Source: an uncultured Alistipes sp. (GTDB lineage: Bacteria > Bacteroidota > Bacteroidia > Bacteroidales > Rikenellaceae). Taken from it: a DNA stretch of 58,279 bases. The position numbers and the translations under genes were made by a program. The DNA lies in NCBI GenBank assembly GCA_944326855.1, contig CALVFO010000015.1:1-58279 (forward strand), given 5' to 3'. This document shows positions 6,988 to 49,505 of this stretch, in pieces. Numbering within the stretch: the stretch's first letter is position 1; each line of letters begins with the position of its first letter. The notes under the pieces are model-generated. The model did not search any database. It saw only the letters and a program-made list of their open reading frames with translations, and had not been told where the DNA came from.

Positions 6988-7382
6988 GAACGATTCCGAA
7001 TCGGATACTTCGAAAGGGTTGCGGCCGGTTTCGGGGGATGATTTGCGGGCAGGATGGCGGGTTGTCACAAAATGGTCTCGGGGCTGTTTGTCGGGGGACC
7101 GTTTGTCGCGGGGGACTGTCTGTTGGGAGGCTGTTTGTTGGGACGGCACCTGCCCGGCACCCGTGCCGGTTATGACGGACATGAGGGCGCCTGCCGGAAA
7201 AGGTCGGATATCGAGGATCCGGATATTAAGGGTCCGAATCTCGAGGGATAAGGATCGGACCGCCGAAAGACACGATTCCCGGTTCGGCTATGAAAAGCGG
7301 ATGTCCCGGATCTCCGCACATCGTTTCTCAAATTTCGATTGAAAAAATCGAGCGATTGCGTTCGATATTCGAAAATAGTTTT
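6988..7382. other. Non-coding spacer after the surface operon
   Basis: No open frame here looks like a protein. The stretch holds a four-unit degenerate tandem repeat (7083-7143) and G-rich sequence with short palindromic words. It ends in an AT-rich promoter-like segment. Confidence 0.5.
7083..7143. repeat. Four-unit degenerate tandem repeat
   Basis: The units are GCTGTTTGTCGGGGGA, CCGTTTGTCGCGGGGGA, CTGTCTGTTGGGAG and GCTGTTTGTTGGGA, head to tail, 14-17 bases each, without spacers. Unit length is not a multiple of three throughout, so it is not a coding repeat. It belongs to a class of spacer repeats seen across this window. Confidence 0.7.
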
Positions 7383-7390
7383 TATATTTG
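7383..7390 (+). promoter_or_regulatory. Bacteroidota -7 promoter box (TATATTTG)
   Basis: TATATTTG fits TAnnTTTG exactly. The best -33 candidate (ATTG at 7355-7358) is 24 bases upstream, longer than usual. No start codon of a credible gene follows for over 400 bases, so the transcript it would make is probably non-coding. Confidence 0.45.
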
Positions 7391-7394
7391 CATG

Positions 7395-7588
7395 CAAGAG
7401 GGGGAGGGAGACCCTGAAGGGGCCGATCAGAAACCTGCTGTTAAAGAAAAAAATCGATGAATCTTTTTTCGGCAAATACTTGGTGGTGGCGCTCGCAACT
7501 TGTTTAAAGGGTGAGTAGCTGACCTGTGCCGAAAATCGCATATATCCGAACAAGGGCTGTCGAACTCACGACAGCCCTTGTTGCTTTC
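7395..7588 (+). ncRNA. Candidate structured small RNA, about 190 nt
   Basis: A promoter-like -7 box lies just upstream, and a 14-bp perfect hairpin (7549-7562 with 7569-7582, 6-base loop) closes the region. The presumed 5' end (7394-7402, GCAAGAGGG) can also pair with the 3' end (7575-7584) with one bulge, in competition with that hairpin. An A/U stem lies in the middle (about 7446-7472). Size and end-to-end pairing recall 6S RNA, but no family motif was recognised and the middle does not fold convincingly by eye. It could equally be a long leader of trpB2. Confidence 0.3.
7549..7582 (+). terminator. 14-bp perfect hairpin
   Basis: AACAAGGGCTGTCG pairs perfectly with CGACAGCCCTTGTT around the loop AACTCA. 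The tail is GCTTTC, so there is no real T-tract. It is either a terminator or the 3' stem of the candidate RNA. Confidence 0.5.
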
Positions 7589-7840
7589 AGCAGCCGTTCT
7601 TTCCGGCCTGTTCTCGCCCCTCCTCCCGGAAAACCGCCAACCAAGGGCCCTGAGTGGCGGACTTTTCGCCCGATCGGTCTCAGCCGCCAGAATCGGTTGA
7701 GAAACCCGCCGAAATCACGATATGGCTTCCGATCGGCAACGAGCGAAAATTTCCGAAGGGTCGGGGTGGGAAATCGGATCGACCAAGTCCCTTCCGCAAT
7801 CGAACTGAAAATGAATGTATAATTTGTAAAACCGAAAACG

Positions 7841-9199
7841 ATGAGCAACAGAATCAAACGCTATTTTCTGCCCGAGGATCAAATTCCGACCCAATGGTAT
7901 AATATTCAGGCCGACATGGTCAATAAGCCCTTGCCGCCTTTGAACCCGGCGACCCGTGAACCGCTTAAACCCGAAGATCTTTATCCGATTTTCGCCAAAG
8001 AGCTGGTCCATCAGGAGCTGAACCAGACCGATGCCTGGATCGACATCCCGGAAGAGGTTCGCGAACTCTATAAAAATTATCGCAGTACGCCGTTGGTGCG
8101 TGCCTATGGGTTGGAAAAGGCTCTGGGAACACCGGCTCACATCTATTTCAAGAACGAAAGTGTCAGCCCGGTGGGATCGCATAAGCTGAACTCGGCGCTG
8201 GCGCAGGCCTACTACTGCAAAAAGGAAGGCATCACCAACATTACGACTGAAACCGGTGCCGGACAGTGGGGAGCCGCACTTTCCTATGCGGCCAAGGCGT
8301 TCGGGTTGGAGTTGGCCGTTTACATGGTGAAAGTCAGCTACGAGCAAAAACCGTATCGCCGTTCGATCATGCAGACTTTCGGGGCTCAGGTGACCGCATC
8401 GCCTTCGATGTCGACCAAAGCCGGTCGTAAGATCCTGACCGATCACCCCAACTATCAGGGATCGCTGGGTACGGCCATTTCGGAAGCCATCGAGCTGGCC
8501 ACGACCGTGCCGAATTGCAAATATACCTTGGGATCGGTGCTTAATCACGTGGCGCTGCACCAGACGGTCATCGGGCTGGAAGCCGAAAAACAGATGGCCC
8601 TGGCGGGAGAATATCCCGATGTGGTGGTAGCCTGCTTTGGCGGAGGATCCAATTTCGGCGGGCTTTGTTTCCCCTTCATGCGTCACACCATCAAAGAAGG
8701 GCGCAAAACCCGTTACGTGGCGGCCGAACCCGCTTCGTGCCCCAAACTGACGCGGGGAAAATTCCTCTATGACTTCGGGGACGAAGCCGGTTATACGCCG
8801 CTGCTTCCGATGTTTACCCTGGGACACAATTTTGCGCCGGCTCACATCCATGCCGGGGGGTTGCGTTATCACGGTGCCGGGGTGATTGTTTCCCAGTTGC
8901 TCAAGGACGGCCTGATGGAAGCGGTCGATATCGACCAGCTGGACAGCTTTGCGGCCGGGTGTCTGTTTGCCCAGACCGAAGGCATTATTCCGGCCCCCGA
9001 ATCTTCGCACGCCATCGCCGCCACGATCCGCGAAGCCAATCGTTGCAAGGAAACCGGCGAAGAAAAGGTGATTTTGTTCAACCTGTCGGGACACGGCCTG
9101 ATCGACATGGCCTCTTACGACAAGTATCTGTCGGGAGACCTCCAGAACTATACGCTTTCCGACGAACAGATTGCCGAAAACCTCAAGGATCTGAAATAG
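7841..9199 (+). CDS. trpB: Tryptophan synthase beta-like protein, TrpB2 type
   Basis: A 452-residue PLP enzyme that would join indole and serine to make tryptophan. The PLP lysine is K115 in GSHKLNSA, the catalytic glutamate sits in TETGAGQWG (E137), and the phosphate-binding loop is GGGSNFGG (267-274). The longer N-terminus and overall length (about 450 against about 400) are typical of the TrpB2 branch, which often lies outside trp operons and does not need TrpA. No trpA or other trp gene is in the window, which fits. The gene stands alone: an imperfect -7 box (TATAATTTG, 7818-7826) lies close to the ATG and a 20-bp hairpin follows the stop. Indole salvage is the likely role. Confidence 0.9.
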   Translation: MSNRIKRYFLPEDQIPTQWYNIQADMVNKPLPPLNPATREPLKPEDLYPIFAKELVHQELNQTDAWIDIPEEVRELYKNYRSTPLVRAYGLEKALGTPAHIYFKNESVSPVGSHKLNSALAQAYYCKKEGITNITTETGAGQWGAALSYAAKAFGLELAVYMVKVSYEQKPYRRSIMQTFGAQVTASPSMSTKAGRKILTDHPNYQGSLGTAISEAIELATTVPNCKYTLGSVLNHVALHQTVIGLEAEKQMALAGEYPDVVVACFGGGSNFGGLCFPFMRHTIKEGRKTRYVAAEPASCPKLTRGKFLYDFGDEAGYTPLLPMFTLGHNFAPAHIHAGGLRYHGAGVIVSQLLKDGLMEAVDIDQLDSFAAGCLFAQTEGIIPAPESSHAIAATIREANRCKETGEEKVILFNLSGHGLIDMASYDKYLSGDLQNYTLSDEQIAENLKDLK

Positions 9200-9213
9200 T
9201 ATTCAGACCCGGA

Positions 9214-9260
9214 TAACAGCCAAGGCCCGCATCCATTTCAGATGCGGGCCTTGGCTGTTA
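9214..9260 (+). terminator. 20-bp perfect hairpin after trpB2
   Basis: Bases 9214-9233 pair perfectly with 9241-9260 around the 7-base loop CATTTCA. The stem is GC-rich in its middle. No T-tract follows (AAGTGAGC), so termination may be partial or factor-assisted. Confidence 0.65.
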
Positions 9261-9262
9261 AA

Positions 9263-9354
9263 GTGAGCCGGGATGTGTGAGTTGGGATGTTGAGTTGAGA
9301 GGTGCGGGTCGGGAAACAGTTGGGGTCGGAACGTTGTTTCGGAGGGTTGGGACG
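9263..9354. repeat. Degenerate tandem repeat, about 14-bp unit
   Basis: About seven loose copies of a G-rich unit, such as GTGTGAGTTGGGAT, GTTGAGTTGAGAG, GTGCGGGTCGGGAAA and CAGTTGGGGTCGGAA, run head to tail right after the trpB2 hairpin. The copies differ by several bases each. Confidence 0.5.
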
Positions 9355-9625
9355 CTTTTATTCGGAACGGTTCATACAAGGGGCGTCGGCAGGTCTGTTT
9401 CGGGTGTTTCGGGCGAAAGTTCGTGTCAGAAAAAATGAACGTTGTCGGCCCGCCTTTTTTCTGTCGGAGTTTGGAAGTGTTTCGGTGAAAAAGGCCCGGA
9501 AACAAAAGGCAGGACCTGTATAAAAGACGGTTCGAACGATGTTTTTTGTGTTTCAGCCGCGGGGAGAACCCTGCGTTGGATCGAAAAAACGTGCTTGGGA
9601 AGTGCCGGTGAAAATCCGGAGCAAG
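9355..9625. other. Non-coding spacer
   Basis: No credible gene and no strong hairpin is seen between the repeat and the promoter of the next operon. The sequence is G- and T-rich on the plus strand. Confidence 0.4.
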
Positions 9626-9658
9626 TTTGGTATAATTCAATAAATTTCTTTAAATTTG
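9626..9658 (+). promoter_or_regulatory. Promoter of the 3-keto-glycoside-type operon
   Basis: TTTG (9626-9629), a 21-base spacer and TAAATTTG (9651-9658) match the -33/-7 consensus exactly. Transcription would start near 9665, leaving a leader of about 115 bases before the ATG at 9782. Confidence 0.65.
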
Positions 9659-9781
9659 TTAGGTTCGGGGTCGGGGAACGGGCCGTTTATTCGTCCGACG
9701 GACTTCCTCCGATAGCCGGGGAGGCGATCTGTCCCGAATGCCGAAAGTTCGACAGTAAACCTAAAACATAAAACCTGAATT

Positions 9782-10648
9782 ATGGACAGAAGAGAATTTT
9801 TGAAGAGATCCCTGCTCGCTTCCGCCGGAGCCTTGGTGGGAGGAAGCCTGCTGGTGGATTCGGTCTCGGCGCGTGAACGGGGAGAAAAAATCGTCGGTCT
9901 GCAACTCTATTCGTTGCGCGATGCGATGAAAAAAAATGTCCCCGCTACCCTGAAAAAAGTTTCGAATATGGGTTATACCATTCTGGAAACGGCCGGGTAT
10001 GGCGATGGAAAACTCTACGGATATACTCCCTCTGAGTTCCGGAAAATGGTCGAAGATTTAGGTATGCAGGTTTCGGGAGCCCATCTCGGGTCCAACTACA
10101 GCCCGGAAACCGAACGGGAGGTGCTCGACTGGTGGCGTGTGGCGCTGGATGCCCAGGCTGAAGCCGGCTGCCGGTATGTCGTACAGGCCTCTTATCCCAT
10201 CGGCGATACGTTGGACGATATCAAACTCTACTGCGATTATTTCAATAAGGTGGGTGAACTGGCCAAAGCCCGCGGTATGCGCTTCGGCTTCCATAACCAC
10301 GCCAAAGAGTTCGAAAAACGGGGCGGTGAAGTGATCTATGACTACATGTTGGCCAATACCGATCCCAATAACGTGATGTTCGAACTGGATGTGTACTGGG
10401 CCGGTAAAGGCGGTGTGGATCCGGTGGCCTACATCGAAAAATACCAGGGACGGATTCCGCTGCTGCATATCAAGGACGAAACGGCCATCGGTGCCAGCGG
10501 AACCATCGATTTCGCTCCGATTTTCGAAGCGGCCTATCAAAACGGCATGGAATCCTATTTCGTGGAAGTGGAACGGTATGATTCTACCCCGGAAAAAGAC
10601 GTGCAGAAAAGCTATGAATTCCTGAACGCCGCTCCGTACGTACGATAA
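9782..10648 (+). CDS. Exported TIM-barrel sugar isomerase/epimerase-like protein
   Basis: A 288-residue protein of the xylose-isomerase-like TIM-barrel family (AP_endonuc_2 fold). It starts with a Tat-type signal (DRREFLKR, then an Ala/Gly-rich hydrophobic stretch ending near residue 30), so it should act in the periplasm. Putative metal ligands are visible in FHNHAKEF (H171, H173), ELDVYW (D203), LHIKDE and EVER. Members next to Gfo/Idh/MocA and DUF1080 genes in Bacteroidetes act on 3-keto-sugars, by isomerisation or beta-elimination of the aglycone. The 30-base gap to the oxidoreductase gene and the shared export signal support a joint pathway. The exact reaction and substrate cannot be read from the sequence. 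Confidence 0.75.
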   Translation: MDRREFLKRSLLASAGALVGGSLLVDSVSARERGEKIVGLQLYSLRDAMKKNVPATLKKVSNMGYTILETAGYGDGKLYGYTPSEFRKMVEDLGMQVSGAHLGSNYSPETEREVLDWWRVALDAQAEAGCRYVVQASYPIGDTLDDIKLYCDYFNKVGELAKARGMRFGFHNHAKEFEKRGGEVIYDYMLANTDPNNVMFELDVYWAGKGGVDPVAYIEKYQGRIPLLHIKDETAIGASGTIDFAPIFEAAYQNGMESYFVEVERYDSTPEKDVQKSYEFLNAAPYVR

Positions 10649-10678
10649 CCTGAATAGAAACCTAAAAAAATCAATAAA

Positions 10679-12163
10679 ATGGCAGATAAAATTAGCCGTC
10701 GCGATTTTCTTCGCACCAGCGCCGTGGGTACGGTCGCTGCCGCCGGGTTGACCGTCGTACCCGGTTCGGTTCTCGGTAAAAAAGTGGGCAAAACGGCCCC
10801 CAGTGATAAACTCAATATCGCCGGCGTAGGAGTCGGCGGACGCGGTGCGGGCGTACTGAAAGGGCTCGAAAGTCAGAATATCGTTGCGCTGTGCGATACC
10901 GACTGGAAATATGCGAAAAAAACCTTCGAACGTTATCCGGGCGCTCGTCGTTTCTGGGACTATCGCGTGATGCTGGATCAGATGAACAAGGATATCGACG
11001 CCGTGGTAGTCGCTACGGCCGACCATACCCACTGTCTGATCGCTTCAGACGCCATGACCCTCGGTAAACACGTCTATGTGGAAAAACCGCTGACCCATAG
11101 CGTGTATGAATCGCGGCTGTTGACCAAACTGGCCAAGAAATACAACGTGGCGACCCAGATGGGGAACCAGGGCTCTTCGGATGTGGGCGTCAGTCAGACC
11201 TGCGACTGGATCTGGAATGGCGAAATCGGGGAAGTGACCCGGGTGGATACGTTCACCGACCGTCCGATCTGGCCTCAGGGATTGATGCGTCCCGATCGGG
11301 TCGATCCCATTCCCAATACCCTGAACTGGGATCTGTTCATCGGTCCGGCCAAAATGCGTCCGTACAACTCCATTTATCAGCCCTGGAACTGGCGTGGCTG
11401 GTGGGACTTCGGTACCGGTGCTTTAGGCGATATGGCTTGCCACATTCTGCATCCGGTGTTCAAGGGCCTGAAGTTGGGGTATCCCTCCAAAGTGCAGGGT
11501 AGTTCGACCGCCCTGTTGACCGATTGCGCGCCTTCGGCCCAAATCGTGAAACTGACCTTCCCCGAACGGGGTTCGATCTACAACGTCAACCTGCCTGAAG
11601 TGGAAGTCAGCTGGTATGACGGCGGTCTGCAACCGCCTCGTCCGGACAATCTCCCGGCCGGAACGAACCTCAATAATGCCGGTGGCGGGGTGATTTTCTA
11701 CGGAACCAAGGATACGCTGGTATGCGGTTGCTATGGGCGTGATCCGTGGTTGGTATCGGGGCGCAAGCCTCAGGTGCCGGCCCGCAATCGCGTGGTGCCC
11801 AACAGCGACCACCAGATGGACTGGGTGCGTGCCTGCAAGGAATCGCCCGAAAATCGCGTGAAAACCGCTTCGGATTTCAGCGAAGCCGGGCCGTTCAACG
11901 AAATGGTCGTGATGGGGGTACTGGCCGTACGTTTGCAGGGGCTGAACAAGATTCTGGAATGGGACGGTGAAAACATGCAGTTCACCAACATCTCTCCGGA
12001 TGAAACCATCAAGATCATGATCGAAGACGGTTTCTCGATCAACGACGGTCATCCGACCTTCAAGAAGACCTATACCGATCCGATCAATGCTCAGCAGTTC
12101 GCACAAGAACTGATCAAGCACACTTATCGCGATGGTTGGAAGCTGGTCGATATGCCCAAGTAA
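10679..12163 (+). CDS. Tat-exported Gfo/Idh/MocA oxidoreductase
   Basis: A 494-residue NAD(P)-dependent oxidoreductase. The N-terminus has a clear Tat motif (SRRDFLRTSA) and hydrophobic stretch, followed by the Rossmann loop GVGVGGRGAGVL (49-60) and the family signature EKP (135-137). The C-terminal part, rich in Trp, Gly and Asp (PWNWRGWWDFGTGALGDMA), is typical of the larger Bacteroidetes members. Tat export of a folded protein implies a tightly held cofactor, as in glucose-fructose oxidoreductase. With the isomerase/lyase-like gene before it and DUF1080 after it, oxidation of a sugar at C3 is the most likely reaction. That is inference from context; GH109-like hydrolysis is an alternative within the same fold. 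Confidence 0.8.
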   Translation: MADKISRRDFLRTSAVGTVAAAGLTVVPGSVLGKKVGKTAPSDKLNIAGVGVGGRGAGVLKGLESQNIVALCDTDWKYAKKTFERYPGARRFWDYRVMLDQMNKDIDAVVVATADHTHCLIASDAMTLGKHVYVEKPLTHSVYESRLLTKLAKKYNVATQMGNQGSSDVGVSQTCDWIWNGEIGEVTRVDTFTDRPIWPQGLMRPDRVDPIPNTLNWDLFIGPAKMRPYNSIYQPWNWRGWWDFGTGALGDMACHILHPVFKGLKLGYPSKVQGSSTALLTDCAPSAQIVKLTFPERGSIYNVNLPEVEVSWYDGGLQPPRPDNLPAGTNLNNAGGGVIFYGTKDTLVCGCYGRDPWLVSGRKPQVPARNRVVPNSDHQMDWVRACKESPENRVKTASDFSEAGPFNEMVVMGVLAVRLQGLNKILEWDGENMQFTNISPDETIKIMIEDGFSINDGHPTFKKTYTDPINAQQFAQELIKHTYRDGWKLVDMPK

Positions 12164-12203
12164 TTCGGAACACAATTTCAAAATCGATAAACGCAAAAAG
12201 AAG

Positions 12204-12992
12204 ATGAAAAAAGTTTGTTATTGGATGGGAGCCGTAGCGGTGGTGGCTTTGATGGCCTCCTGCGGCGGTAATGCCAGCAAAAAAGCCGCTGCTGACAGCA
12301 CGGCGACCAAAACGGTGGAAGAAGAAGGATGGGTGACCATTTTCGACGGTGAAACGTTCAACGGCTGGCGTGGTTACAATAAGGATACCGTACCCGGGGC
12401 TTGGACGATCGAAGACGGTGCCATTAAGATCAATGGCTCGGGAGCCGGAGAAGCCGGGGCCCGCAATGGGGGCGATTTGATCTATGCCGCCGAAAAGCTG
12501 GGGAATTTCGAACTGGAACTCGAATACAAGGTCGATAAAGGTTCCAACAGCGGGATTTTCTACATGATTCAGGAAGTACCCGAAACGCCCAGCTACTATT
12601 CGGCCCCTGAATATCAGGTGTTGGACAATGAAAATCATCCCGATGCCAAACTGGGTGTGAATGGGAACCGCAAATCGGCTTCGTTGTACGATATGATTCC
12701 GGCCGTTCCTCAGAACGCCAAACCGTACGGCGAATGGAATACGGCCAAAATCATGGTGTACAAAGGTACCGTGGTACATTATCAGAATGGCGAACCGGTG
12801 GTGGAATACCATCTGTGGACACCGGAATGGCAGGCGATGCTGGATAAGAGCAAGTTCAGCAAGGATAAGAACGCCAAAGCCTATGAATTGCTGCTTAACT
12901 GCGGTGGCGAAAACAAGGAAGGCTATATCGGTCTTCAGGACCATGGCGATAACGTGTGGTTCCGTAACATTCGGGTGAAAAAGCTCGACTAA
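12204..12992 (+). CDS. DUF1080 lipoprotein (3-keto-disaccharide hydrolase family)
   Basis: A 262-residue lipoprotein; the ATG at 12204 is chosen because it gives a clean lipobox (LMASC, Cys20), whereas the longer frame from 12132 overlaps the previous gene. After an Ala/Thr-rich linker comes the DUF1080 beta-sandwich, with its usual opening (VTIFDGETFNGWRG), a central KVDKGSNSGIFY and an end in GLQDHGDNVWFRNIRVKKL. This family, a concanavalin-like fold, includes hydrolases of 3-keto-glycosides. It closes the three-gene operon and is followed by a 20-bp hairpin. The three products together could oxidise, cleave and process a glycoside entirely in the periplasm. Confidence 0.85.
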   Translation: MKKVCYWMGAVAVVALMASCGGNASKKAAADSTATKTVEEEGWVTIFDGETFNGWRGYNKDTVPGAWTIEDGAIKINGSGAGEAGARNGGDLIYAAEKLGNFELELEYKVDKGSNSGIFYMIQEVPETPSYYSAPEYQVLDNENHPDAKLGVNGNRKSASLYDMIPAVPQNAKPYGEWNTAKIMVYKGTVVHYQNGEPVVEYHLWTPEWQAMLDKSKFSKDKNAKAYELLLNCGGENKEGYIGLQDHGDNVWFRNIRVKKLD

Positions 12993-13015
12993 CCGTTACG
13001 AGGCTCACGGAGCAT

Positions 13016-13058
13016 AAGACAAGGAGGCGTTTCCCTTGGGGAAACGCCTCCTTGTCTT
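13016..13058 (+). terminator. 20-bp perfect hairpin after the DUF1080 gene
   Basis: Bases 13016-13035 pair perfectly with 13039-13058 around a 3-base loop. Only one T follows before TGCTGGGGG, so it lacks a T-tract. It lies 23 bases after the stop codon. Confidence 0.7.
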
Positions 13059-14300: not shown

Positions 14301-14324
14301 ATGCAGACCGGTTTCGGTCTGGAT

Positions 14325-14763: not shown

Positions 14764-17139
14764 ATGACTTCTGCCTTTTCTGCTCTGCGCGGTGGCGTGT
14801 TGGCCTTTTGCGCAGTTGCCTCTTTGCTGGTCTCTTGTGGCGGGACCGGAAAACAACTCTCCTTCGATGATATGCGGTTGCGTTACCGCGAAACGCTGGT
14901 GGGGCGCTCCCCGTTGGATCTTTCGGACAGCGTGGTGGCCGGACGTATCGCCCGCATCGATCAAACCGCCGAAACTTGTTGGAAATCACTTGATAAATCC
15001 GCCGATCGGACCTGGTTGTGGGAAGATTGCAACCGCGAAGGCATCTCGACCAATACGCTGATTCCGTACAGCCGATTGTTGTCGATGACCCTGGCCTGGG
15101 CCACCGAAGGATCGCGCTACGAAGGAAACGATACCCTCAAACGCGACATTATCGCAGGGCTGGATTGGATGTATGAAAATCGTTACAACCCGTCGATTCC
15201 GTTGTATGACAACTGGTGGATGTTCGTGATCGGGACTCCGCTGAATATCGATAAAATGATGGTGCTGCTCTACGATGAGTTGACCGATCAACAAAAGGCC
15301 AACTACATCGGTGCCATGAACTATTATGCTCCCGATGTCACCTACGAAGGGGCTGCTACCGGAGCCAATAAGATCTGGCAGTGTAACAGCATGGCGCTGC
15401 GCGGGATTCTGGCCCACGATCCGGATATGATCCGCATGGCGGTGGACGGTTTGCAGACCGAATTCAAAATCGTCCGGACGCATGACGGTTTTTATGAAGA
15501 CGGTTCGTTCGTGCAGCATCAGTGGCATCCCTATACGGGCGGTTATGGCCGTTCGTTGTTGGGACAGTTGACGGAGATGGTGAATCTGGTGCAGGGAAGC
15601 TCCTGGGAGGTTCCTGAAGAACAGGTCAATATGTTGTATGGATGGGTGCACAATGCCTATGAACCGTTGATGTTCCGAGGGGCGATGATGGATATGGTGC
15701 GCGGACGGGAGGTGTCGCGTCCGGGAGCCGGTGACCGCGGAACCGGACACAGTATTTTGGTGTCGATGTTCATGCTTTCCCAGAGTGCTCCCGAACCGGA
15801 ACGAAGCCGCCTGCAAAGCGCCGTGAAACAACAGGCCCTGGAGGATACGTATCGCGATCTGATTATGGATATTCCGCTCTATCTGGTGGCCGATTACCGG
15901 GCCATGATGGCCGATGAAAACATCCGGCCGGCGGAACCCGTCACCCTGCATAAACAGTTCTCGGCCATGGATCGCGTGGTGCACAAGACCCCCGGGTTTG
16001 CCTTGGGGTTGGCCATGTCTTCGGCCCGGATCGAGAACTACGAAACGATCAACGACGAAAACCTCAAGGGTTGGTATACGGCCGACGGGATGACCTACCT
16101 GTTCGATGGGGACCTGCGGCAATACAGCGAAAATTTCTGGCCGACGGTCGATCCCTATCGGCTGGCCGGAACGACCGTGGATACCCGGCCTCGGGAGGCC
16201 AAAACCTTGCCGTTGGCTCCGGGGTTGTTGTATGCCGACGGCTATAAAAGTCCGCAACGTTGGGTGGGCGGAGCCTCGATAGACGCTCTGTACGGGGCTG
16301 TCGGGATGTGGCTCGATGCTTATGAAAGTACGTTGGAAGCCAAGAAAAGCTGGTTTATGGCCGGGAATGAAATCGTTTGCCTGGGAGCCGGGATCAACAG
16401 CACCGACAATCGCACGATTGAGACCACGGTGGAAAACCGGAAATTGAATGCCGATGCCCGATACACGATGACGCTGGACGGGAAACCGGTGCTGACCCAA
16501 AATGGACGTTTGAGTGCTCCGCAGGCCCGTTGGGTACATTTCGCCGGGACGACCGAAGGAACAGCCGTAGGGTACTACTTCCCGAAACCGACTGCCGTGA
16601 ACCTGTTGCGGGAGGATCGTACCGGAAACTGGATCGATATCAATTACGCTGCCTTGAATATGCCCGATGTGACGAAAGGGTATTTTACCCTGTGGATGGA
16701 TCACGGAAAGAATCCTCGGGAAGCGACCTATGCCTATGTGCTGTTGCCCGGATTGTCGGCCGAACAGACCGCCCGCTATGCGGAACAACCGACGGTTTCC
16801 GTGCTGGCCAACGAAGCACGGGTACAGGCGGTGCGTCATGATGCCTGTGGCGTAACGGGCATCAATTTCTGGGAAGCGGGGTCCTTACCGGCTGTCGGGC
16901 TGAGTGTCGATGCTCCCTGCTCGGTGGTGATCCGGGAGGCCGACGGACAGCTGACGATCGGGGTGAGCGATCCTACCCAGGTGAATGAAACGGGCGTCGA
17001 AGTGACGCTGGATCGTACGGTGGGACAGCTCGTGCAGGAAAATCCCGATGTGAAAGTGTTGTCGACCTCGCCGCTCCGATTGCGGATCCACACGGCTGGA
17101 AAATTGGGCCGTACGGCTCAGGTGGCGTTTGCTCTGTAG
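14764..17139 (+). CDS. Polysaccharide lyase family 8 lipoprotein, copy 1
   Basis: A 791-residue lipoprotein (LVSC, Cys25) with the PL8 layout: an N-terminal alpha/alpha toroid, then beta-sandwich domains. Likely catalytic residues are Asn202 (GANKIWQ), His252 and Tyr261 (QHQWHPYTGGYG; the nine-residue His-Tyr spacing matches known PL8 lyases) and Arg315/Arg319 (VRGREVSR). The aromatic patch DNWW (149-152) fits a sugar-binding cleft. PL8 enzymes cut hyaluronan, chondroitin sulfates or xanthan by beta-elimination, leaving a 4,5-unsaturated uronate; kduI and kduD nearby favour a glycosaminoglycan. It is the first of three tandem paralogues. Length is normal for the family. The exact substrate cannot be told from sequence. 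Confidence 0.9.
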   Translation: MTSAFSALRGGVLAFCAVASLLVSCGGTGKQLSFDDMRLRYRETLVGRSPLDLSDSVVAGRIARIDQTAETCWKSLDKSADRTWLWEDCNREGISTNTLIPYSRLLSMTLAWATEGSRYEGNDTLKRDIIAGLDWMYENRYNPSIPLYDNWWMFVIGTPLNIDKMMVLLYDELTDQQKANYIGAMNYYAPDVTYEGAATGANKIWQCNSMALRGILAHDPDMIRMAVDGLQTEFKIVRTHDGFYEDGSFVQHQWHPYTGGYGRSLLGQLTEMVNLVQGSSWEVPEEQVNMLYGWVHNAYEPLMFRGAMMDMVRGREVSRPGAGDRGTGHSILVSMFMLSQSAPEPERSRLQSAVKQQALEDTYRDLIMDIPLYLVADYRAMMADENIRPAEPVTLHKQFSAMDRVVHKTPGFALGLAMSSARIENYETINDENLKGWYTADGMTYLFDGDLRQYSENFWPTVDPYRLAGTTVDTRPREAKTLPLAPGLLYADGYKSPQRWVGGASIDALYGAVGMWLDAYESTLEAKKSWFMAGNEIVCLGAGINSTDNRTIETTVENRKLNADARYTMTLDGKPVLTQNGRLSAPQARWVHFAGTTEGTAVGYYFPKPTAVNLLREDRTGNWIDINYAALNMPDVTKGYFTLWMDHGKNPREATYAYVLLPGLSAEQTARYAEQPTVSVLANEARVQAVRHDACGVTGINFWEAGSLPAVGLSVDAPCSVVIREADGQLTIGVSDPTQVNETGVEVTLDRTVGQLVQENPDVKVLSTSPLRLRIHTAGKLGRTAQVAFAL

Positions 17140-17319
17140 AAGCCGGAAAACCGGTATCGATTCCGACGGGGAGCGTTGGATCGAGATCCACGTACAGTCG
17201 GGATGCAGGACCATCGGAATGTCTTTGAAAACGTGCCTGCAGAAGACCGGCGGGGATGCAGGGCGTCCTTCGGGAAAGAAAACGCGAGGAAATAACAAAC
17301 CGTCATATAAGTTGTACCT

Positions 17320-19692
17320 ATGAATGGATACTTTGCGATACTGAAACGTTCGTGCTGGTTGCTGTTGCTGCTGGGCAGCCTGTTGAGTGGATGTTCCCGT
17401 AAAAACCTTTCGTTCGACGATCTGCGTTTGCGTTATCGCCGGACCTTGCTGCCGGCCAAGGTGGATCGTTCGGACAGCCTGATCGCAGCCCGTACCGCTG
17501 CGGCCGATCAGGCGGTGGAAACCTATTGGAACGAAATGAACCGAACGCCCGGGCGGGATTATCTGTGGACCGATTCGCGGGATCGTTTTGCCGAAGCCCA
17601 GTCGCTGACTATGGATTATGGGCGTCTGGAAGCCATGGCGCGTGCCTGCTATACCCCCGGATCGCGTTATGAAGGGAACGACTCCCTGTTGAGGGATGTG
17701 ATTGCCGGGCTGGACTGGATGTTCCAGAACCGTTACAATCCCGATACCCCCATGTATCACAACTGGTGGGAATGGGTGATCGGGGTGCCGATGACGCTGA
17801 ACAATATTTTGGTCGTGCTGTACGACGATCTGACTCCTCAACAACGGGCCAATTATCTTTCGGCCATGGACTATTATGCCCCGAACGTAACTTTCGAAGG
17901 CGCTTCGACCGGGGCCAACAAAATCTGGCAATGCGGAAATATGGCCCTGCGAGGGATCATCGCTCAACGACCCGAACAAGTGCAGATGGCCATCGACGGC
18001 TTGTCGACCGAGTTCGTCTATGTGACGACCAAGGACGGTTTCTATCGGGACGGCTCTTTTGTCCAGCATCAGTGGCATCCCTATAATGGAGGTTATGGCG
18101 CTTCGATGCTTTCGCACATGGCCAGTGTGATCCCTCTGGTGCACGGATCGCCGTGGGAGGTGCCTCAGGAGTATCAGCAGATGCTGTTCGAATGGGTCAG
18201 AAATGGATATGAACCCCTCTTGTACCGGGGAGCCATGATGGATATGGTACGCGGGCGCGAAATCTCCCGGAAGGGATACGGCGACCGGGCATCGGGACAC
18301 AGTGTGCTGGTTTCGATGCTCAAACTGTCGGATGTGGCGCCCGATGACGAAAAGGCTCGTTTGCGTTCGGTGATCAAGGCCCATATGTTGGCCGATACCT
18401 GCCGCGATTTGCTGTTGGATATGCCTACGTATCTGGTGGGCGAGGCTCGGGCGCTGCGTGAAGACAAACGAGTGGTGCCTGCCGAACCGGGTACCCTCAA
18501 TAAGGTGTTCGGGGCCATGGATCGGGCCGTGCATATTCGTCCGGGGTTTGCCTTGGGCCTGGCCATGTCTTCGGAGCGGATCGAGAACTACGAGACGATC
18601 AACGGCGAAAACCTCAAGGCCTGGTACATTGGCGATGGAATGACCTATCTGTATGACGGAGATTTGCGGCAGTTCGGGGAAGATTTCTGGCCGACGGTCA
18701 ATGCGTATCGTATGCCCGGAACCACGGTGGATACCCGCGAACGAAAGGCCGAAACACTGCCTTTTGCGCCGGGATTGCTGTATGCCGACGGGTATAAGAG
18801 TCCCGAAAGTTGGGTGGGGGGATCCTCCCTGTTCGGGGAATTCGGCATGGTGGGAATGGCCCTCAAGGCGTTCGAAAGCACACTGACGGCTAAAAAATCG
18901 TGGTTTATGGTCGATGATGAGATCGTTTGCCTCGGAGCCGGTATCGACAGCCGCGACAACCGTACGATCGAAACCATCGTCGAAAACCGAAAACTCAACG
19001 ATGCGATGCGGTATCGGTTCGAGTTGGAAGGGGTGCCCGTATTAACTCAAAATGAAAGCCGTCAGGTGGAAAATCCCGGTTGGGTGCATTTCGAGGGTTC
19101 GGATGAGGGAACCTCCGTGGGCTATTATTTTCTGGAACCTGCTCGGGTGAATCTTCTGCGTGAAACCCGGACGGGATCGTGGTATGAAATCAGTCAGCCT
19201 TATGGCGATAAAACGCCTATCGTCAAAGACTATTTCACGATGTGGATCGATCATGGAAAGAATCCTCGGGGCGCTACCTATGCGTATGTGTTGTTGCCGG
19301 GCAGTAACCTCGAACAAACAATGCTCTATGCCCGGAATCCGAATGTCAGCGTGCTGGCCAATACTCCGCAGGTCCAGGCCGTACGTCATCGCACCGAAGG
19401 GGTGACGGGACTGAATTTCTGGGAGGCGGGGACCCTGCCCCAGGCGGGCGTGAGTGTGAGCGCTCCCGCTTCGGTGATCTTGCGGGAAACGGAGGATGAA
19501 TTGTGGATCGCCCTGAGCGACCCGACCCATCAACAAACCGGACCGATCACCCTGGAAGTGGCCCGAGAAGCTGAATCGGTGATGGTCGATGACCCTCGGG
19601 TGAAGGTTCTCTCGTTGGTTCCGGTCGTGAAGCTGGAGGTGGATGTCGTCGGAACGTTGGGTGAAACCCTGGAGGTGAAACTGAAAAAGTAG
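17320..19692 (+). CDS. Polysaccharide lyase family 8 lipoprotein, copy 2
   Basis: A 790-residue paralogue of the flanking PL8 genes, with lipobox LSGC (Cys25). Catalytic residues are conserved: Asn200 (GANKIWQ), His250 and Tyr259 (QHQWHPYNGGYG), and Arg313/Arg317 (VRGREISR). The hydrophobic platform HNWWEW lies at 148-152. It starts 180 bases after copy 1, without a recognisable promoter or terminator between, so it is probably co-transcribed. The C-terminal third (NFWEAGTLPQAGVSV, then the LSLVPVVKLEV strands) corresponds part for part to the other copies. Differences among copies lie mostly in the toroid loops near the cleft, so different sulfation or chain preferences are plausible but not shown. 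Confidence 0.9.
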   Translation: MNGYFAILKRSCWLLLLLGSLLSGCSRKNLSFDDLRLRYRRTLLPAKVDRSDSLIAARTAAADQAVETYWNEMNRTPGRDYLWTDSRDRFAEAQSLTMDYGRLEAMARACYTPGSRYEGNDSLLRDVIAGLDWMFQNRYNPDTPMYHNWWEWVIGVPMTLNNILVVLYDDLTPQQRANYLSAMDYYAPNVTFEGASTGANKIWQCGNMALRGIIAQRPEQVQMAIDGLSTEFVYVTTKDGFYRDGSFVQHQWHPYNGGYGASMLSHMASVIPLVHGSPWEVPQEYQQMLFEWVRNGYEPLLYRGAMMDMVRGREISRKGYGDRASGHSVLVSMLKLSDVAPDDEKARLRSVIKAHMLADTCRDLLLDMPTYLVGEARALREDKRVVPAEPGTLNKVFGAMDRAVHIRPGFALGLAMSSERIENYETINGENLKAWYIGDGMTYLYDGDLRQFGEDFWPTVNAYRMPGTTVDTRERKAETLPFAPGLLYADGYKSPESWVGGSSLFGEFGMVGMALKAFESTLTAKKSWFMVDDEIVCLGAGIDSRDNRTIETIVENRKLNDAMRYRFELEGVPVLTQNESRQVENPGWVHFEGSDEGTSVGYYFLEPARVNLLRETRTGSWYEISQPYGDKTPIVKDYFTMWIDHGKNPRGATYAYVLLPGSNLEQTMLYARNPNVSVLANTPQVQAVRHRTEGVTGLNFWEAGTLPQAGVSVSAPASVILRETEDELWIALSDPTHQQTGPITLEVAREAESVMVDDPRVKVLSLVPVVKLEVDVVGTLGETLEVKLKK

Positions 19693-19908
19693 CAGGAAAC
19701 GACTGCTGAAGCCGGGAATCCGGCTCCCTAATTTCTGGGATCCTCCGCTCCCCGGTTCTCTGGTTCTTTGGATCTTCGGCTCCCTGACTCCCCGGCTCGA
19801 ACGGTGATGAAGATTTTTCGGAAATCGGGGAGAACATTGCGGTATCCGCTTATGGGCAGGAACCTTTGTGCGGATCTTCTGGCGATACGTTGAAAGGCGG
19901 ACAGGGGC
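19693..19908. other. Spacer with C/T-rich short repeats
   Basis: From 19721 to 19799 the sequence is a loose run of 8-9 base words such as CGGCTCCCT, CTCCCCGGT, TCTCTGGT and TCTTCGGCT. The rest shows nothing recognisable. No promoter matching the Bacteroidota consensus was found. Confidence 0.45.
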
Positions 19909-20061
19909 GTGTCGGGCAGGGGGTGTTGAATCGGAAAGAGTGGGATCGGGAACTGTCTGACTGGGGGAGTGTTGGATCGAGGCGTGTCTGACGGGGAAAG
20001 TGTCTGACAAAGGAAATGTCGGATCGAGGAATGTGGGATCGAGGCGTGTCGGATTGAGAAA
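19909..20061. repeat. Ten-unit degenerate tandem repeat
   Basis: Ten head-to-tail units of 14-17 bases fill this spacer, among them GTGTCGGGCAGGGG, GTGTTGAATCGGAAA, TGTCTGACTGGGGGA, GTGTTGGATCGAGGC, GTGTCTGACGGGGAAA and TGTCGGATCGAGGAA. A rough consensus is GTGTCkGAyCGrGGAA. Units vary in length and sequence, so this is an old or fast-drifting minisatellite. No flanking inverted repeats or spacers of CRISPR type are present. Confidence 0.75.
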
Positions 20062-20133
20062 TGGAAGGCAGAAATGTTTTCTTCTGGCTGTGCAAAGAAT
20101 CGAATAATACCTGAAAAATAAGACCCTAAAAGA

Positions 20134-36545: not shown

Positions 36546-36717
36546 CGCCTGATCGTTTTAAGGTTACATTTCGATGCCGAAATTGCTCGGCTGCTTTCGA
36601 ATTTAATGATTTTTCTCCGATTTTCTTCGATTTTTCTCGTGTTTCTGCATTTTTTTTAGGGGAATATCCGCAGATGATGCCGGACGCCCCCTTCGTTTAG
36701 AATCTCAAAAAAATCAT

Positions 36718-39750: not shown

Positions 39751-39995
39751 GCTTTCCCTTGGGTGTATGAACGAAAGACGATCAGCGCGGTGGGTTAGGG
39801 CGACTGACCTATGGATCGGGAAACCTGTTGAGGGGAAATCTTGGATAAAGGGGTTGACTGCTGGAGCGTGGAATACGGAGCGGGGAATGTACGGAGGAAG
39901 CTCTTGTCTGGGGATGAAACGGGAACCGATCGTAGACATGACGGCTTGAAAAGGTGAGGCTTGTTTCGTTTCCGGGGGTGGATTTTAGAGGAAAT
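39751..39995. other. Non-coding spacer
   Basis: No credible gene is seen. The sequence is G-rich, with loose repetition of GGAAxC and GGGG words leading into the repeat array. Confidence 0.4.
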
Positions 39996-40131
39996 CCTTG
40001 AAACCGGAACCAGCATCGGAACCTGAACAGACCCAAATAGAACAGGGTGCAGCACCGGTCCCGAACAACTCCGGACCCGAGAATTCGGACCCGAATCCGA
40101 ACCGTTTCAGAGCAGGAACCGGAAACCGAAA
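39996..40131. repeat. Degenerate tandem repeat, about 11-12 bp unit, about 12 copies
   Basis: Units such as CCTTGAAACCGG, AACCAGCATCGG, AACCTGAACAG, CACCGGTCCCG, AACAACTCCGG, ACCCGAGAATTCGG, ACCCGAATCCG and AACCGTTTCAG run head to tail. Copies differ strongly. The strand carrying purine-C words is opposite in character to the G/T-rich repeats elsewhere. Confidence 0.65.
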
Positions 40132-40235
40132 GGCTCCCCCGAGAGAGGGCGACCTCATGATGGAAGAGTGATGGGGAAAATAGAGACGGCTCTACCCGAT
40201 TCGCTAAAACTTAAAAAATACATTCGGAAAAAATC

Positions 40236-40273
40236 CTAAAAAAGCCGGTCCTTTCGTGGACCGGCTTTTTTAG
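40236..40273 (-). terminator. Terminator of pgk
   Basis: Bases 40236-40251 pair perfectly with 40258-40273 around a 6-base loop. Runs of A on the left and T on the right let it work for either strand. It lies 22 bases past the pgk stop codon. Confidence 0.85.
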
Positions 40274-40295
40274 TTTGGGGCGAATTGCCCGGGAA

Positions 40296-41740: not shown

Positions 41741-41832
41741 TAAAATTATTTTAATAAATAGGCCATCCCGAGGGTTCTCCCCTTTTTTTACCGAATAAAC
41801 CGATGGGTAGAGCGGCGGATGACGAAAATAAC

Positions 41833-41840: not shown

Positions 41841-41862
41841 TTGAGGTATCTGTAATCCGACG

Positions 41863-43494: not shown

Positions 43495-44685
<1,191 letters not shown>

Positions 44686-44869
44686 TCGACGATCCGTTGG
44701 ACGAACTTCGGGCGGAACGGTTTTCCCCCGGAGATCGCTCTTATATCGCTTGTAAGACCCTGTGCCGGACCTCTGCTCGAGGCCCGGCGCGGCGGCCTTG
44801 ACGAAACCGCTCCCGAAGACCTCGAAACCGGGAGGCCATAGCTAAGTGTTTCATTTAAAACAATGAACT

Positions 44870-45340: not shown

Positions 45341-45361
45341 ACCCGATAATTCGAAACGATC

Positions 45362-45811: not shown

Positions 45812-46149
45812 ACCCTCCGCATAAACAGCGCGAATCGGGAGAGCCTCTGGGGGAGTCCGTGTCCGGGAATCGTCCGGGAATCGTCCGTTAACCGATTCTG
45901 AGGTGGAGAGATTCCCTGTCCGTACCGCGAAATGCCGGATGAGAGGGAATCCCGCTCGGACAGGAGGTATAGACCCGATTTCAAAAATTCTTCCGAAAGA
46001 AGCCGTACGGAGACGGCTTCGGATGGGGTAGGTAATCCGGCCTTGAGGCGTTGCCTGAGGACCGGTTTCTTCGTATAACCAGGCGGGATGGTTTGTCCGC
46101 TGTTCCGGATGTCGAACCGAATGGACCGTATCGCCCCGAAATTGACCGT
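45812..46149. other. Spacer before polA
   Basis: It contains the direct repeat GTCCGGGAATC (twice, around 45861-45882) and related GAATC/TCCG words. No consensus promoter and no strong hairpin were found. A frame running from 46051 into polA lacks any family match before 46150. Confidence 0.4.
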
Positions 46150-49100
46150 ATGGAAAAACTCTTTCTGATCGATGCCTATGCGCTGATCTTCCGCTCCTAT
46201 TACGCTTTCATCAACCGTCCGATGCGCAACGCCGAAGGCCTCAATACCTCGGCGGTGTTCGGCTTCGTGAAGTTTCTCAACGAGCTGATCCGACGGGAAC
46301 AGCCCCACTATCTGGGGGTGGCTTTCGATCCGAAAGGCGGTAACTTCCGGCATGATCTCTATCCGGCTTATAAGGCCAATCGGGAGGCGACTCCGGAAGA
46401 TATCGTGGCGTCGGTTCCTTATATCAAGGAGGTGTTGGAGGCGATGCGTATTCCGGTGATCGAGATTCCGGGTTACGAGGCCGATGATGTGATCGGAACC
46501 CTGTCGCGAAAAGCCTCCGAAGCAGGATACGAAGTTTTTATGGTGACGCCGGACAAGGATTTCGGACAACTGATTCGCCCTACGGTCCATATCTACAAGC
46601 AGCGAAAAGGCAGCGAAGGGATTGAAGTGATCGGATGTGAGCAGTTGCACGAACATTACGGCATTGACGATCCCCGGCAGGTGATCGATATCCTAGCCTT
46701 GTGGGGCGATGCGGCGGACAATATTCCCGGAGTGCCGGGTATCGGAGAGAAAAGCGCCACCAAACTGGTGTGTGCGTTCGGGTCGGTGGAAAACCTGTTG
46801 GAAAACCTCGATCAACTCAAAGGAAAACAGCGCGAAAATATCGAACGTTCAGCCGATCAGATCCGTTTGGCCAAACAGTTGGCCACCATCGAACTGAATG
46901 TGCCGGTGGAGTTTGTGCCCGAGCAGTTGCAGCTGGAGACGCCCGATCTGGATCGCTTGGCCGCCGTGTATCGGGAACTGGGCTTTCGGTCGATGTTGGC
47001 GGAGCTGCAGGGGGGAAACCGTTTTGCGGTTTCGGGGAAAGAGGCCCCGAAGCGAGAAGCGGACAGCCGGCAGCTCTCAGCCGGGAGGACCGGATCGGGT
47101 CCCGCAGCCGCAACTTCGGGTATGTCGCTTCCGGAGGGCCGGCCTGCTGTTGCCGGAGTGACAGGGAAAAGGGTCAACGATCTGTTCAGTGCCGCAGCCC
47201 CCGCAGAGGAGGGGAATCGTTCGGTGTCGGATCGGCATGGACTCGGCTCGGGAGGACCGGCTTCGGGAATGACTCCGGCCTCTGATCGGGGCGGGGCGGG
47301 AACACCGGTGCAAGGAGACCTGTTTGCCGGCACATCGTCGGCATCTCCCGTTGTTGTTTCGCCGCGTCCGAATATCTTCGCTTCCGGCCGTGCGGACGAT
47401 GCAGAAAACACCCCGGACGGAGCGGAAAATTCAGCCTATGCAACGATCGATACGGTGGAGCATGTTTATCATACGGTGTCCGATCCGGAGAGCCTGTCGG
47501 CTTTGGTCGGTCGACTGAGCCGGGTGGAGGCTTTCTGTTTCGATACCGAAACCACGGGCTTCGATGTTTTCGGAGATCGGCTGGTGGGAATCTCCCTGTC
47601 CGTCGAACCGCATGAAGCCTGGTATGTGGTCTGTACCCCGGAGAATACGGCCTCCGTTCTGGATGCGTTGCGCCCGCTGTTCGAAAACGAACGGATCGCC
47701 AAAATCGGTCAGAACCTCAAGTTCGACATGATGGTCCTGAAGGCCGCCGGAGTGGACGTACGAGGCATGTTATACGACACGATGATCATCCATTATCTGC
47801 TCGATCCCGAGTCGCGGCACGGAATGGATTATCTGGCCCGCACCTACCTGCATTACTCGCCCGTTCCGATCGAATCGCTGATCGGGAAGGGGGCCCGTCA
47901 ACTGACGATGGATCGGGTGGCCGTCGAGGTGGTGTCGGCCTATTCCTGTGAAGATGCCGACGTGACTCTGCAACTGAAACTCCGTTTGTGGCCGATGTTG
48001 GTGGAGGCCGGACTGGAAGAGTTGTATCGTCGGATCGAAGAGCCGCTGATCGGGGTGTTGGCGGAAATCGAAATGACCGGCGTGAAAATCGATTTGGAAA
48101 CTCTGGCGGCTTCGGGACGCGAACTGAACGCCCAGCTGGCCGGGTTGGAAGACCGGATCCGGGAGTTGGTCGGCGATCCGTCCCTCAATGTCAATTCGGC
48201 CAAACAGTTGGGCGAGGCACTTTTCGGGCGCCTGAGGATCGACCCCAAACCGAAAATGACCAAAACCAAACAGTATCGTACGGACGAAGAATATCTGCAG
48301 ATGTTGTCGGATCGTCATCCGGTCATCGATCTGATTCTTGAATACCGGGGTTTGCGCAAATTGTTGTCGACCTATGTGGAGGCCTTGCCTTTGCTGGTGA
48401 ACCCGCGGACGGGACGCATCCATACTTCATTCAACCAGGCTGTGACGGCGACCGGACGTCTCAGTTCGACCAATCCCAATCTGCAAAATATTCCGGTACG
48501 CGAACAGCGGGGGCGCGAAATTCGGAAGGCATTCGTGCCGACGGATCGGGATCATCTGCTTCTGTCGGCCGACTATTCTCAGGTGGAATTGCGTCTGATG
48601 GCTCATCTGAGCGGAGATCAGGCCATGATCGAGGCGTTCGCTCATGGCGAAGATATTCATGCCGCTACGGCGGCCCGGGTATTCGGGGTTCCGTTGGATG
48701 AGGTGACGGCCGATCAGCGCCGTAAGGCCAAAACCGCCAATTTCGGGATTATTTACGGAATTTCGGCCTTCGGTCTGGCACAACGCCTGCATATCCCCCG
48801 CACCGAAGCCAAAGAGATCATCGACGGCTATTTCGCCTCCTATCCCGATGTCAAACGCTATATGGACGAAGTGGTGGCAAAGGCTCGGGAAGAAGGGTAT
48901 GTGACCACACTGTTCGGACGGAAACGGATGTTGCCCGATATTCGCTCGGGAAATGCCGTGGTGCGCGGGCTTTCGGAACGCAATGCCATCAATGCCCCCA
49001 TTCAGGGCGGAGCGGCCGATATTATGAAATTGGCCATGATCGCCGTTCATCGCGAGTTGAAGGAACGGGGATTGCAGTCGAAGGTGATTTTGCAGGTGCA

Positions 49101-49245
49101 CGACGAACTGGTGGTGGACATGTTGCGCAGTGAAGAGGCTCAGGTTCGGGAACTGGTCGTACGTTGCATGGAGGAGGCCGCCCATCTGAAAGTGAAACTG
49201 ATTGCCGATTGCGGCGTGGGCGAAAATTGGGTCGAGGCCCATTAA
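46150..49245 (+). CDS. polA: DNA polymerase I
   Basis: A 1031-residue polymerase for gap filling and primer removal. The start MEKLFLIDAYALIFRSYYAF is the canonical beginning of the 5' nuclease domain. The 3'-5' exonuclease is intact: FDTETTG (Asp465, Glu467), GQNLKFD and YSCEDADVT. Polymerase motif A is DYSQVELRL (Asp808), the O helix starts RRKAKTANFGIIYG (from 857) and motif C is HDELV (Asp985). The chain is about 100 residues longer than common forms because of a Gly/Ala/Ser/Pro-rich linker at roughly 290-440 between the two nuclease domains. It stands alone. Confidence 0.96.
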   Translation: MEKLFLIDAYALIFRSYYAFINRPMRNAEGLNTSAVFGFVKFLNELIRREQPHYLGVAFDPKGGNFRHDLYPAYKANREATPEDIVASVPYIKEVLEAMRIPVIEIPGYEADDVIGTLSRKASEAGYEVFMVTPDKDFGQLIRPTVHIYKQRKGSEGIEVIGCEQLHEHYGIDDPRQVIDILALWGDAADNIPGVPGIGEKSATKLVCAFGSVENLLENLDQLKGKQRENIERSADQIRLAKQLATIELNVPVEFVPEQLQLETPDLDRLAAVYRELGFRSMLAELQGGNRFAVSGKEAPKREADSRQLSAGRTGSGPAAATSGMSLPEGRPAVAGVTGKRVNDLFSAAAPAEEGNRSVSDRHGLGSGGPASGMTPASDRGGAGTPVQGDLFAGTSSASPVVVSPRPNIFASGRADDAENTPDGAENSAYATIDTVEHVYHTVSDPESLSALVGRLSRVEAFCFDTETTGFDVFGDRLVGISLSVEPHEAWYVVCTPENTASVLDALRPLFENERIAKIGQNLKFDMMVLKAAGVDVRGMLYDTMIIHYLLDPESRHGMDYLARTYLHYSPVPIESLIGKGARQLTMDRVAVEVVSAYSCEDADVTLQLKLRLWPMLVEAGLEELYRRIEEPLIGVLAEIEMTGVKIDLETLAASGRELNAQLAGLEDRIRELVGDPSLNVNSAKQLGEALFGRLRIDPKPKMTKTKQYRTDEEYLQMLSDRHPVIDLILEYRGLRKLLSTYVEALPLLVNPRTGRIHTSFNQAVTATGRLSSTNPNLQNIPVREQRGREIRKAFVPTDRDHLLLSADYSQVELRLMAHLSGDQAMIEAFAHGEDIHAATAARVFGVPLDEVTADQRRKAKTANFGIIYGISAFGLAQRLHIPRTEAKEIIDGYFASYPDVKRYMDEVVAKAREEGYVTTLFGRKRMLPDIRSGNAVVRGLSERNAINAPIQGGAADIMKLAMIAVHRELKERGLQSKVILQVHDELVVDMLRSEEAQVRELVVRCMEEAAHLKVKLIADCGVGENWVEAH

Positions 49246-49285
49246 TGCTTTCTCCGGATCTCTGCGCCTTGGGGACGGGAAATTG

Positions 49286-49446
49286 TGCGGGAATACTCAG
49301 GGGGCATCCTGAGCGGAACTGCTGAGAGGAAAGGTGAACAGGGACGCTGAGCGGAGGTGTTGAGCGGGAATGCCCAGTGGGCATGTTAAGTGGCATTGCT
49401 GAAAGGGGAGGCGAACAGAAATGCTGAGCGGAGTGCTTGAGTGAGA
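49286..49446. repeat. Degenerate tandem repeat with core GCTGAGCGGA
   Basis: Copies of GCTGAGCGGA or near matches lie at 49308, 49321, 49346, 49359, 49398 and 49423, within units of about 13-15 bases. Some units are lost or diverged between them. The array starts about 40 bases past the polA stop. Confidence 0.65.
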
Positions 49447-49470
49447 ATGGAAAAGGTGAGCGTGAGGGTG

Positions 49471-49505
49471 AAGATGGGGATGAGAATGAGGATGAGGATG
49501 AGAAT
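49471..49505. repeat. Hexamer repeat GATGAG/AATGAG
   Basis: About six copies of GATGGG, GATGAG, AATGAG, GATGAG, GATGAG and AATG follow the previous array directly. Hexamer period is clear. Confidence 0.75.

What the first reader, a model, noticed from the sequence alone, without database searches (positions are those of the whole stretch)
7083..49505. Many spacers carry unrelated short tandem repeats, a genome-wide spacer habit
Arrays at 7083-7143, 9263-9354, 19721-19799, 19909-20061, 39996-40131, 49286-49446 and 49471-49505 each use a different unit (6-17 bp), yet all sit just after a gene or operon end and before the next promoter. No coding region shows the same. This suggests a process that repeatedly generates repeats in spacers, such as replication slippage or repair at terminator hairpins, rather than spread of one element.
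Basis: partly seen in the sequence, partly recalled or inferred. Interest (0 to 1): 0.7.

Follow-up and report, generated by a model that had tools for sequence, protein, structure and literature searches.

The report
Decayed tandem repeats in gene spacers
The stretches of DNA between genes in this gut bacterium often contain short sequences copied head to tail, a different one in each place; they are most likely harmless copying slips that build up where little is written, and many relatives have them too.

Summary
Six of the seven named intervals beat 1000 shuffles; 19721-19799 does not. In a 444-kb sample of this genome, spacers carry about 25 bp of array per kb, against about 1 after shuffling and 2.4 in genes. 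The nearest relative, G001, has 38; five other congeners have 0-7. The window is the richest part sampled: 62 bp/kb against 18 in the rest.

The trait is patchy across Bacteroidota, not special to this genome: 80 polA loci pool to 39 bp/kb against 1.4-2.7 shuffled.

Units are nearly all private to their spacer, neighbouring copies are the most alike, and arrays avoid the stretch before start codons. Array bases rarely align with the sister species. Genes also carry arrays, mostly in multiples of three.

Best reading: small tandem duplications and slippage in unconstrained DNA, decaying by point mutation. Terminator hairpins show no link (2 of 44 arrays nearby, 4.2 expected). The repair genes looked for give no explanation. 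Why the load differs between close species stays open.

The parts
7082..7143 (.). degenerate array, 15 bp x 4.0, in spacer 6988-7840
   Evidence: TRF score 57; 1 of 1000 shuffles
   Evidence: TRF score 49
9270..9297 (.). array, 13 bp x 2.1, in spacer 9200-9781
   Evidence: TRF score 49; 1 of 1000 shuffles of the interval
19754..19775 (.). weak array, 8 bp x 2.8, the core of the claimed 19721-19799; not above chance
   Evidence: TRF score 30; 66 of 1000 shuffles
19898..19926 (.). array, 15 bp x 2.0, in spacer 19693-20133
   Evidence: TRF score 42
20015..20063 (.). array, 15 bp x 3.3, same spacer
   Evidence: TRF score 63; 1 of 1000 shuffles of 19909-20061
36608..36638 (.). array, 10 bp x 2.9, in a divergent spacer (counter-example to the placement rule)
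   Evidence: TRF score 48
40055..40095 (.). array, 14 bp x 2.7, in convergent spacer 39751-40295
   Evidence: TRF score 45; 6 of 1000 shuffles
45861..45887 (.). perfect array, 11 bp x 2.5, in spacer 45812-46149
   Evidence: TRF score 54, 100% match
49283..49449 (.). higher-order array, 77 bp x 2.2, in convergent spacer 49246-49676
   Evidence: TRF score 185; 0 of 1000 shuffles; for 49283-49506 no other match in the genome below E = 3
49469..49506 (.). array, 18 bp x 2.1 (6-bp sub-unit), same spacer
   Evidence: TRF score 62; 1 of 1000 shuffles
4542..4579 (.). coding array, 15 bp x 2.5, inside gene 4320-5336 (my gene call)
   Evidence: TRF score 62
47227..47268 (.). coding array, 15 bp x 2.7, in the linker of polA (46150-49245)
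   Evidence: TRF score 45

Best explanation
The arrays are degenerate minisatellites made on the spot. A small tandem duplication or polymerase slippage copies a few to a few tens of bases of spacer DNA. The copies expand by further slippage, sometimes to a higher-order unit of 77-95 bp, and then decay by point mutation. They persist where sequence carries little function, mainly the stretch after a gene end, and selection removes them from promoters, leaders and reading frames unless the unit is a multiple of three. Shown: units nearly all private, likeness of neighbouring copies, depletion before starts, the multiple-of-three excess in genes, poor alignment with the sister species. Inferred: the enzymatic step, and whether the higher load in this species pair is a mutational bias or weaker selection.
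For: Excess over shuffles, 26.8 against 1.0 bp/kb. Adjacent copies score 0.67 in likeness, non-adjacent 0.43, over 11 arrays of 3.7 or more copies; one reads as three copies of one variant followed by three of a second. 22 of 23 G000 arrays have no off-site match in the sample. Density falls to 6 bp/kb in the fifth of tandem spacers before the start codon. Array bases align with G001 in 5% (G000) and 7% (G001) of cases, other spacer bases in 23-24% and 23%, 42 pairs. TRF rows with periods divisible by three: 44 of 50 in genes, 23 of 57 in spacers, p = 3e-7. Where only one sister has an array its spacer is the longer in 11 of 14 pairs. The same spacer holds unrelated arrays in both species in 2 of 45 pairs.
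Against: One of the 14 pairs (4223-4319) is a gene-start error of my caller, leaving 10 of 13, p = 0.09. Within array-bearing spacers arrays are not significantly less alignable than a shifted position (P = 0.36 and 0.16). Coding array density is not raised in G000 and G001 (2.4, 3.6 bp/kb) relative to five congeners (2.2-5.5), which a plain genome-wide rise in slippage would predict. Non-adjacent copies can look less alike through phase drift, as copies were cut at a fixed period. At the polA loci the profile along tandem spacers is flatter (27, 51, 53, 44, 31 bp/kb). Arrays lean to G over C on the sense strand (19 of 27, p = 0.05), which is unexplained. No within-species variation could be looked at.
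Confidence: 0.72

Rival explanations
1. Function: the arrays are kept as regulatory or termination elements (for example protein or Rho binding sites in 3' UTRs).
For: Placement after gene ends; lean to G over C on the sense strand, 19 of 27.
Against: Units differ from spacer to spacer and the array parts are hardly kept between sister species; congeners mostly lack arrays.
Confidence: 0.08
2. Repair or slippage at terminator hairpins makes the arrays.
For: By eye, the array at 9270-9297 starts 11 bp after an inverted repeat at 9215-9259.
Against: 2 of 44 arrays lie within 60 bp of a terminator-like hairpin, null 4.2; 9 of 36 array-bearing spacers have such a hairpin against 82 of 238 spacers with a gene 3' end. 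The hairpin scan is crude and misses some stems.
Confidence: 0.06
3. Weaker purifying selection alone: G000 and G001 keep duplications that congeners purge, at the same rate of origin.
For: Coding array density is the same in the pair and in congeners; mismatch-repair and exonuclease genes looked for are present in both.
Against: No sign that spacers of the pair are longer as a class: 53.3 kb in 209 and 29.9 kb in 91 against, for example, 28.9 kb in 81 in G008. Selection strength was not measured.
Confidence: 0.25
4. Decayed copies of dispersed mobile elements.
For: Similar repeats occur inside a MITE of another Bacteroidales species (PMC4596501, search listing).
Against: Private units, 22 of 23 without off-site match; 49283-49506 has no second place in the genome below E = 3.
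Confidence: 0.03
5. Artefact of short-read metagenome assembly.
For: The window is from a 55-contig draft genome; the three single-contig congeners G004, G006, G008 have low density.
Against: Draft congeners G002 and G005 (20 and 40 contigs) have the lowest densities of the seven compared, and arrays of G000 and G001 sit in collinear contigs.
Confidence: 0.03

Closest known systems
Bacterial minisatellites / VNTR loci formed by slipped-strand mispairing (general class, recalled)
   Same: Head-to-tail units, private to a locus, mostly in noncoding DNA, neighbouring copies most alike
   Different: Mostly degenerate here; copy-number variation not testable; found in about a tenth of sampled spacers rather than at a few loci
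Tandem repeats of archaeal Borg elements (PMC9879509; abstract, outline and found passages seen)
   Same: Scattered in spacers and genes, independently formed, fast evolving; units in genes divisible by three (all there; 44 of 50 rows here) and a minority in spacers (14-38% there; 23 of 57 rows here)
   Different: Borg units are perfect and A-rich; these are mostly imperfect (36 of 42 arrays below 95% match) and lie on a bacterial chromosome
Minisatellite inside a Porphyromonas gingivalis MITE (PMC4596501; search listing and start of abstract seen)
   Same: Tandem repeats in a Bacteroidales genome
   Different: There the repeat sits in a transposable element; here units are nearly all private

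Membership tests
Minisatellite / slippage-type tandem repeat | head-to-tail copies beyond chance | tested here: met
   6 of 7 claimed intervals; sample-wide excess over shuffles
Minisatellite / slippage-type tandem repeat | unit private to its locus | tested here: met
   22 of 23 G000 arrays without off-site match at E <= 0.01 in the 444-kb sample
Minisatellite / slippage-type tandem repeat | neighbouring copies more alike than distant ones | tested here: met
   0.67 against 0.43 over 11 arrays, with the phase-drift caveat
Minisatellite / slippage-type tandem repeat | copy number varies between strains | not testable with these tools
   one genome per species is held
Borg-type tandem repeats | perfect units | tested here: not met
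   36 of 42 arrays below 95% match
Borg-type tandem repeats | A-enriched units | not tested
   compositions listed vary; no statistic run
Dispersed repeat element (REP, MITE) | one sequence family in many spacers | tested here: not met
   private units
Terminator-linked repeat | closeness to terminator hairpins | tested here: not met
   2 of 44 near, null 4.2

The most novel reading that the evidence does not exclude
Some Bacteroidales lineages have a mutational process that grows spacers by local tandem duplication, acting outside genes and turned up or down between close species although the repair genes checked here are present in both, so that much of the unconstrained spacer DNA in such genomes descends from decayed tandem arrays.
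Probability: 0.15. Interest if true: 0.55.

Novelty: new member of a known kind. Interest (0 to 1): 0.33.

Why it matters
It would show that the origin of spacer DNA in gut Bacteroidales is partly a copying process whose outcome differs several-fold between close species. That bears on reading spacer conservation, on telling regulatory elements from debris, and on choosing strain markers. The contrast between G000/G001 and five congeners is a ready system in which to look for the cause.

Tried and rejected
Loss of mismatch repair: rejected, MutS and MutL are present in G000 and G001. Y-family polymerase, XseA, RecJ, SbcD: no difference that tracks array density among near-complete congeners. 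G000, G001, G004 and G008 have one Y-family match, G002, G005 and G006 two; XseA and RecJ are present in all seven; no SbcD match passes the cut-off in any of 9. Other repair genes were not looked for.

Spread of one element: rejected. Terminator link: not supported. Replication strand: 27 of 43, p = 0.13.

Spacers made wholly of fainter repeats: 7-mer recurrence outside TRF arrays is about twice the block-shuffled value in G000 and G001, but also in low-density G004 and G008, so it is no mark of this pair.

Rfam: five hits in the window at E <= 0.5, all below their families' gathering scores.

Papers: six searches; no listed row is on tandem repeats of Alistipes or Bacteroidales spacers as a class. 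Searches listed 15 of 87 and 15 of 129 papers, and only an open-licence library was searched.

Limits: gene calls are mine (hexamer script) and miss some short genes, for example, by eye, an rpsO-like gene in the C54 spacer 11469-12408. Samples are stretches, not whole genomes; densities from 20-60 kb are rough. The window was picked because it looked rich, and is. The 80 polA loci are the best 80 of 349 matches and include the locus of G001 (L032). Dropped before counts: spacers under 60 or over 1200 bp (and later), pairs whose shorter spacer is under 60 and longer under 100 bp (45 of 72 kept), pairs outside 60-1200 bp (42 of 72 kept).

Full report
The window. It is a whole contig (G000:C15) of a 2.48-Mb genome in 55 contigs; relatives found through its polA are titled Rikenellaceae, Alistipes and Tidjanibacter. 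The nearest genome held is G001; its contig C3 of 393465 bases has the length and polA position of the record CALVCS010000003.1, titled uncultured Alistipes sp. E01__bin127. 40 of my 43 gene calls in the window have a reciprocal best hit along about 68 kb of that contig, in the same order. Over the samples compared, 88 reciprocal best hits have a median protein identity of 90%.

The arrays. TRF finds 29 rows in the window at score 30 or more. Genes carry arrays too, at 4542-4579 and twice in polA, once in its linker (47227-47268). Density in genes is about ten times lower (2.4 against 25 bp/kb).

More than chance, and more than in congeners. In 444 kb of G000 (the window plus 386 kb) the spacers hold 26.8 bp of array per kb, shuffled copies 1.0 +- 0.9. 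With spacers of 60-1200 bp the values are 25.2 (G000, 19 of 209 spacers) and 37.8 (G001, 17 of 91), against 0.0, 3.1, 7.1, 6.6 and 5.0 in G002, G005, G006, G004 and G008. Pooled, 36 of 300 spacers against 15 of 353 (p = 4e-4); at score 50 or more, 27 against 3 (p = 5e-7). The window is richer (62 bp/kb, 7 of 27 spacers) than the rest of the sample (18 bp/kb, 12 of 182), as expected for a region picked by eye.

Not special to this genome. At 80 polA loci of Bacteroidota, 92 of 577 spacers carry arrays, 39 bp/kb, against 6-13 spacers and 1.4-2.7 bp/kb in five shuffles. This set includes the G001 locus. Small samples of other genomes range from 0 (G010, G015, G024, G031; G039) to 31 (G027), 49 (G018) and 79 (G017, only 4 spacers). 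The trait is widespread and patchy.

Placement. In tandem spacers of G000 and G001 the density from stop to start is 59, 80, 61, 29 and 6 bp/kb per fifth; divergent spacers have 11, tandem 39, convergent 31. The polA loci show convergent 64, tandem 40, divergent 27, but a flatter profile along tandem spacers (27, 51, 53, 44, 31). So arrays keep away from the promoter and leader side in this pair, less clearly elsewhere. An example is the spacer 6988-7840: its arrays lie at 7082-7246, while a block at 7455-7582 is kept at 90% identity in G001. That block holds a leader peptide reading MNLFSANTWWWRSQLV, matches the Bacteroidete trp leader family weakly (21.6 bits, cut-off 49), and stands in front of a TrpB-like gene.

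How they arise. Units are nearly all private: of 23 G000 arrays one has an off-site match in the sample, inside a gene. Neighbouring copies are more alike than distant ones (0.67 against 0.43). The longest array, 49283-49449, repeats a 77-bp unit that by eye holds shorter repeats. Periods in genes are multiples of three in 44 of 50 TRF rows, in spacers in 23 of 57. Between the sister species array bases hardly align (5% and 7%, other spacer bases 23-24% and 23%), though within the same spacer the difference from a shifted position is not significant (P = 0.36, 0.16). The array bearer is usually the longer spacer (10 of 13 after dropping one gene-start error; p = 0.09). This fits duplication and slippage in place, with decay, in DNA that is free to change. 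The polA linker, by eye rich in Ser, Gly and Ala and different in the two species, looks like an in-frame version of the same process.

What it is not. Closeness to terminator hairpins is below expectation (2 of 44, null 4.2), with one stem at 9215-9259 missed by the scan. Strand of replication shows no clear link (27 of 43). Arrays lean to G over C on the sense strand (19 of 27, p = 0.05). MutS, MutL, XseA and RecJ are present in both species. Coding arrays are not more common in the rich pair than in congeners, which speaks against a simple global rise in slippage and leaves room for weaker selection on spacers as the cause.

Known kind. The arrays behave as degenerate minisatellites. The closest genome-wide case seen here is that of Borg elements (PMC9879509; abstract, outline and passages), which differ by perfect and A-rich units. 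Six literature searches listed nothing on Bacteroidales spacers as a class.

Noticed in passing
7457-7507, with hairpin 7549-7582: A 16-residue leader peptide with three Trp codons in a row and a terminator-like hairpin in front of a TrpB-like gene: a probable tryptophan attenuator. The block is 90% identical in G001; loci of G014, G016 and G006 show a TGGTGGTGG run before a similar hairpin. The Rfam score is below the cut-off.
   Followed up: partly
46150-49245: DNA polymerase I with a long linker between its 5'-3' and 3'-5' exonuclease domains; in 4 of 5 congeners of at least 95% completeness other than G001 (G002, G004, G005, G008, not G006) the match breaks at this linker.
   Followed up: partly
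14764-22527: Three genes of similar length in a row; the second and third are polysaccharide lyase family 8 by Pfam (the first was not scanned), and G001 has three homologues in a row there.
   Followed up: no
9215-9259: Long inverted repeat just after the TrpB-like gene, without a long T run (read by eye).
   Followed up: no
L037, L080, L074, L077, L087: polA neighbourhoods of other records titled Alistipes, Rikenellaceae or Tidjanibacter with 101-196 bp of array per kb of spacer, richer than this genome (1.4-3.5 kb of spacer each).
   Followed up: no
genus of the window, 9 genomes: No SbcD match over the family cut-off in any of 9 genomes.
   Followed up: no
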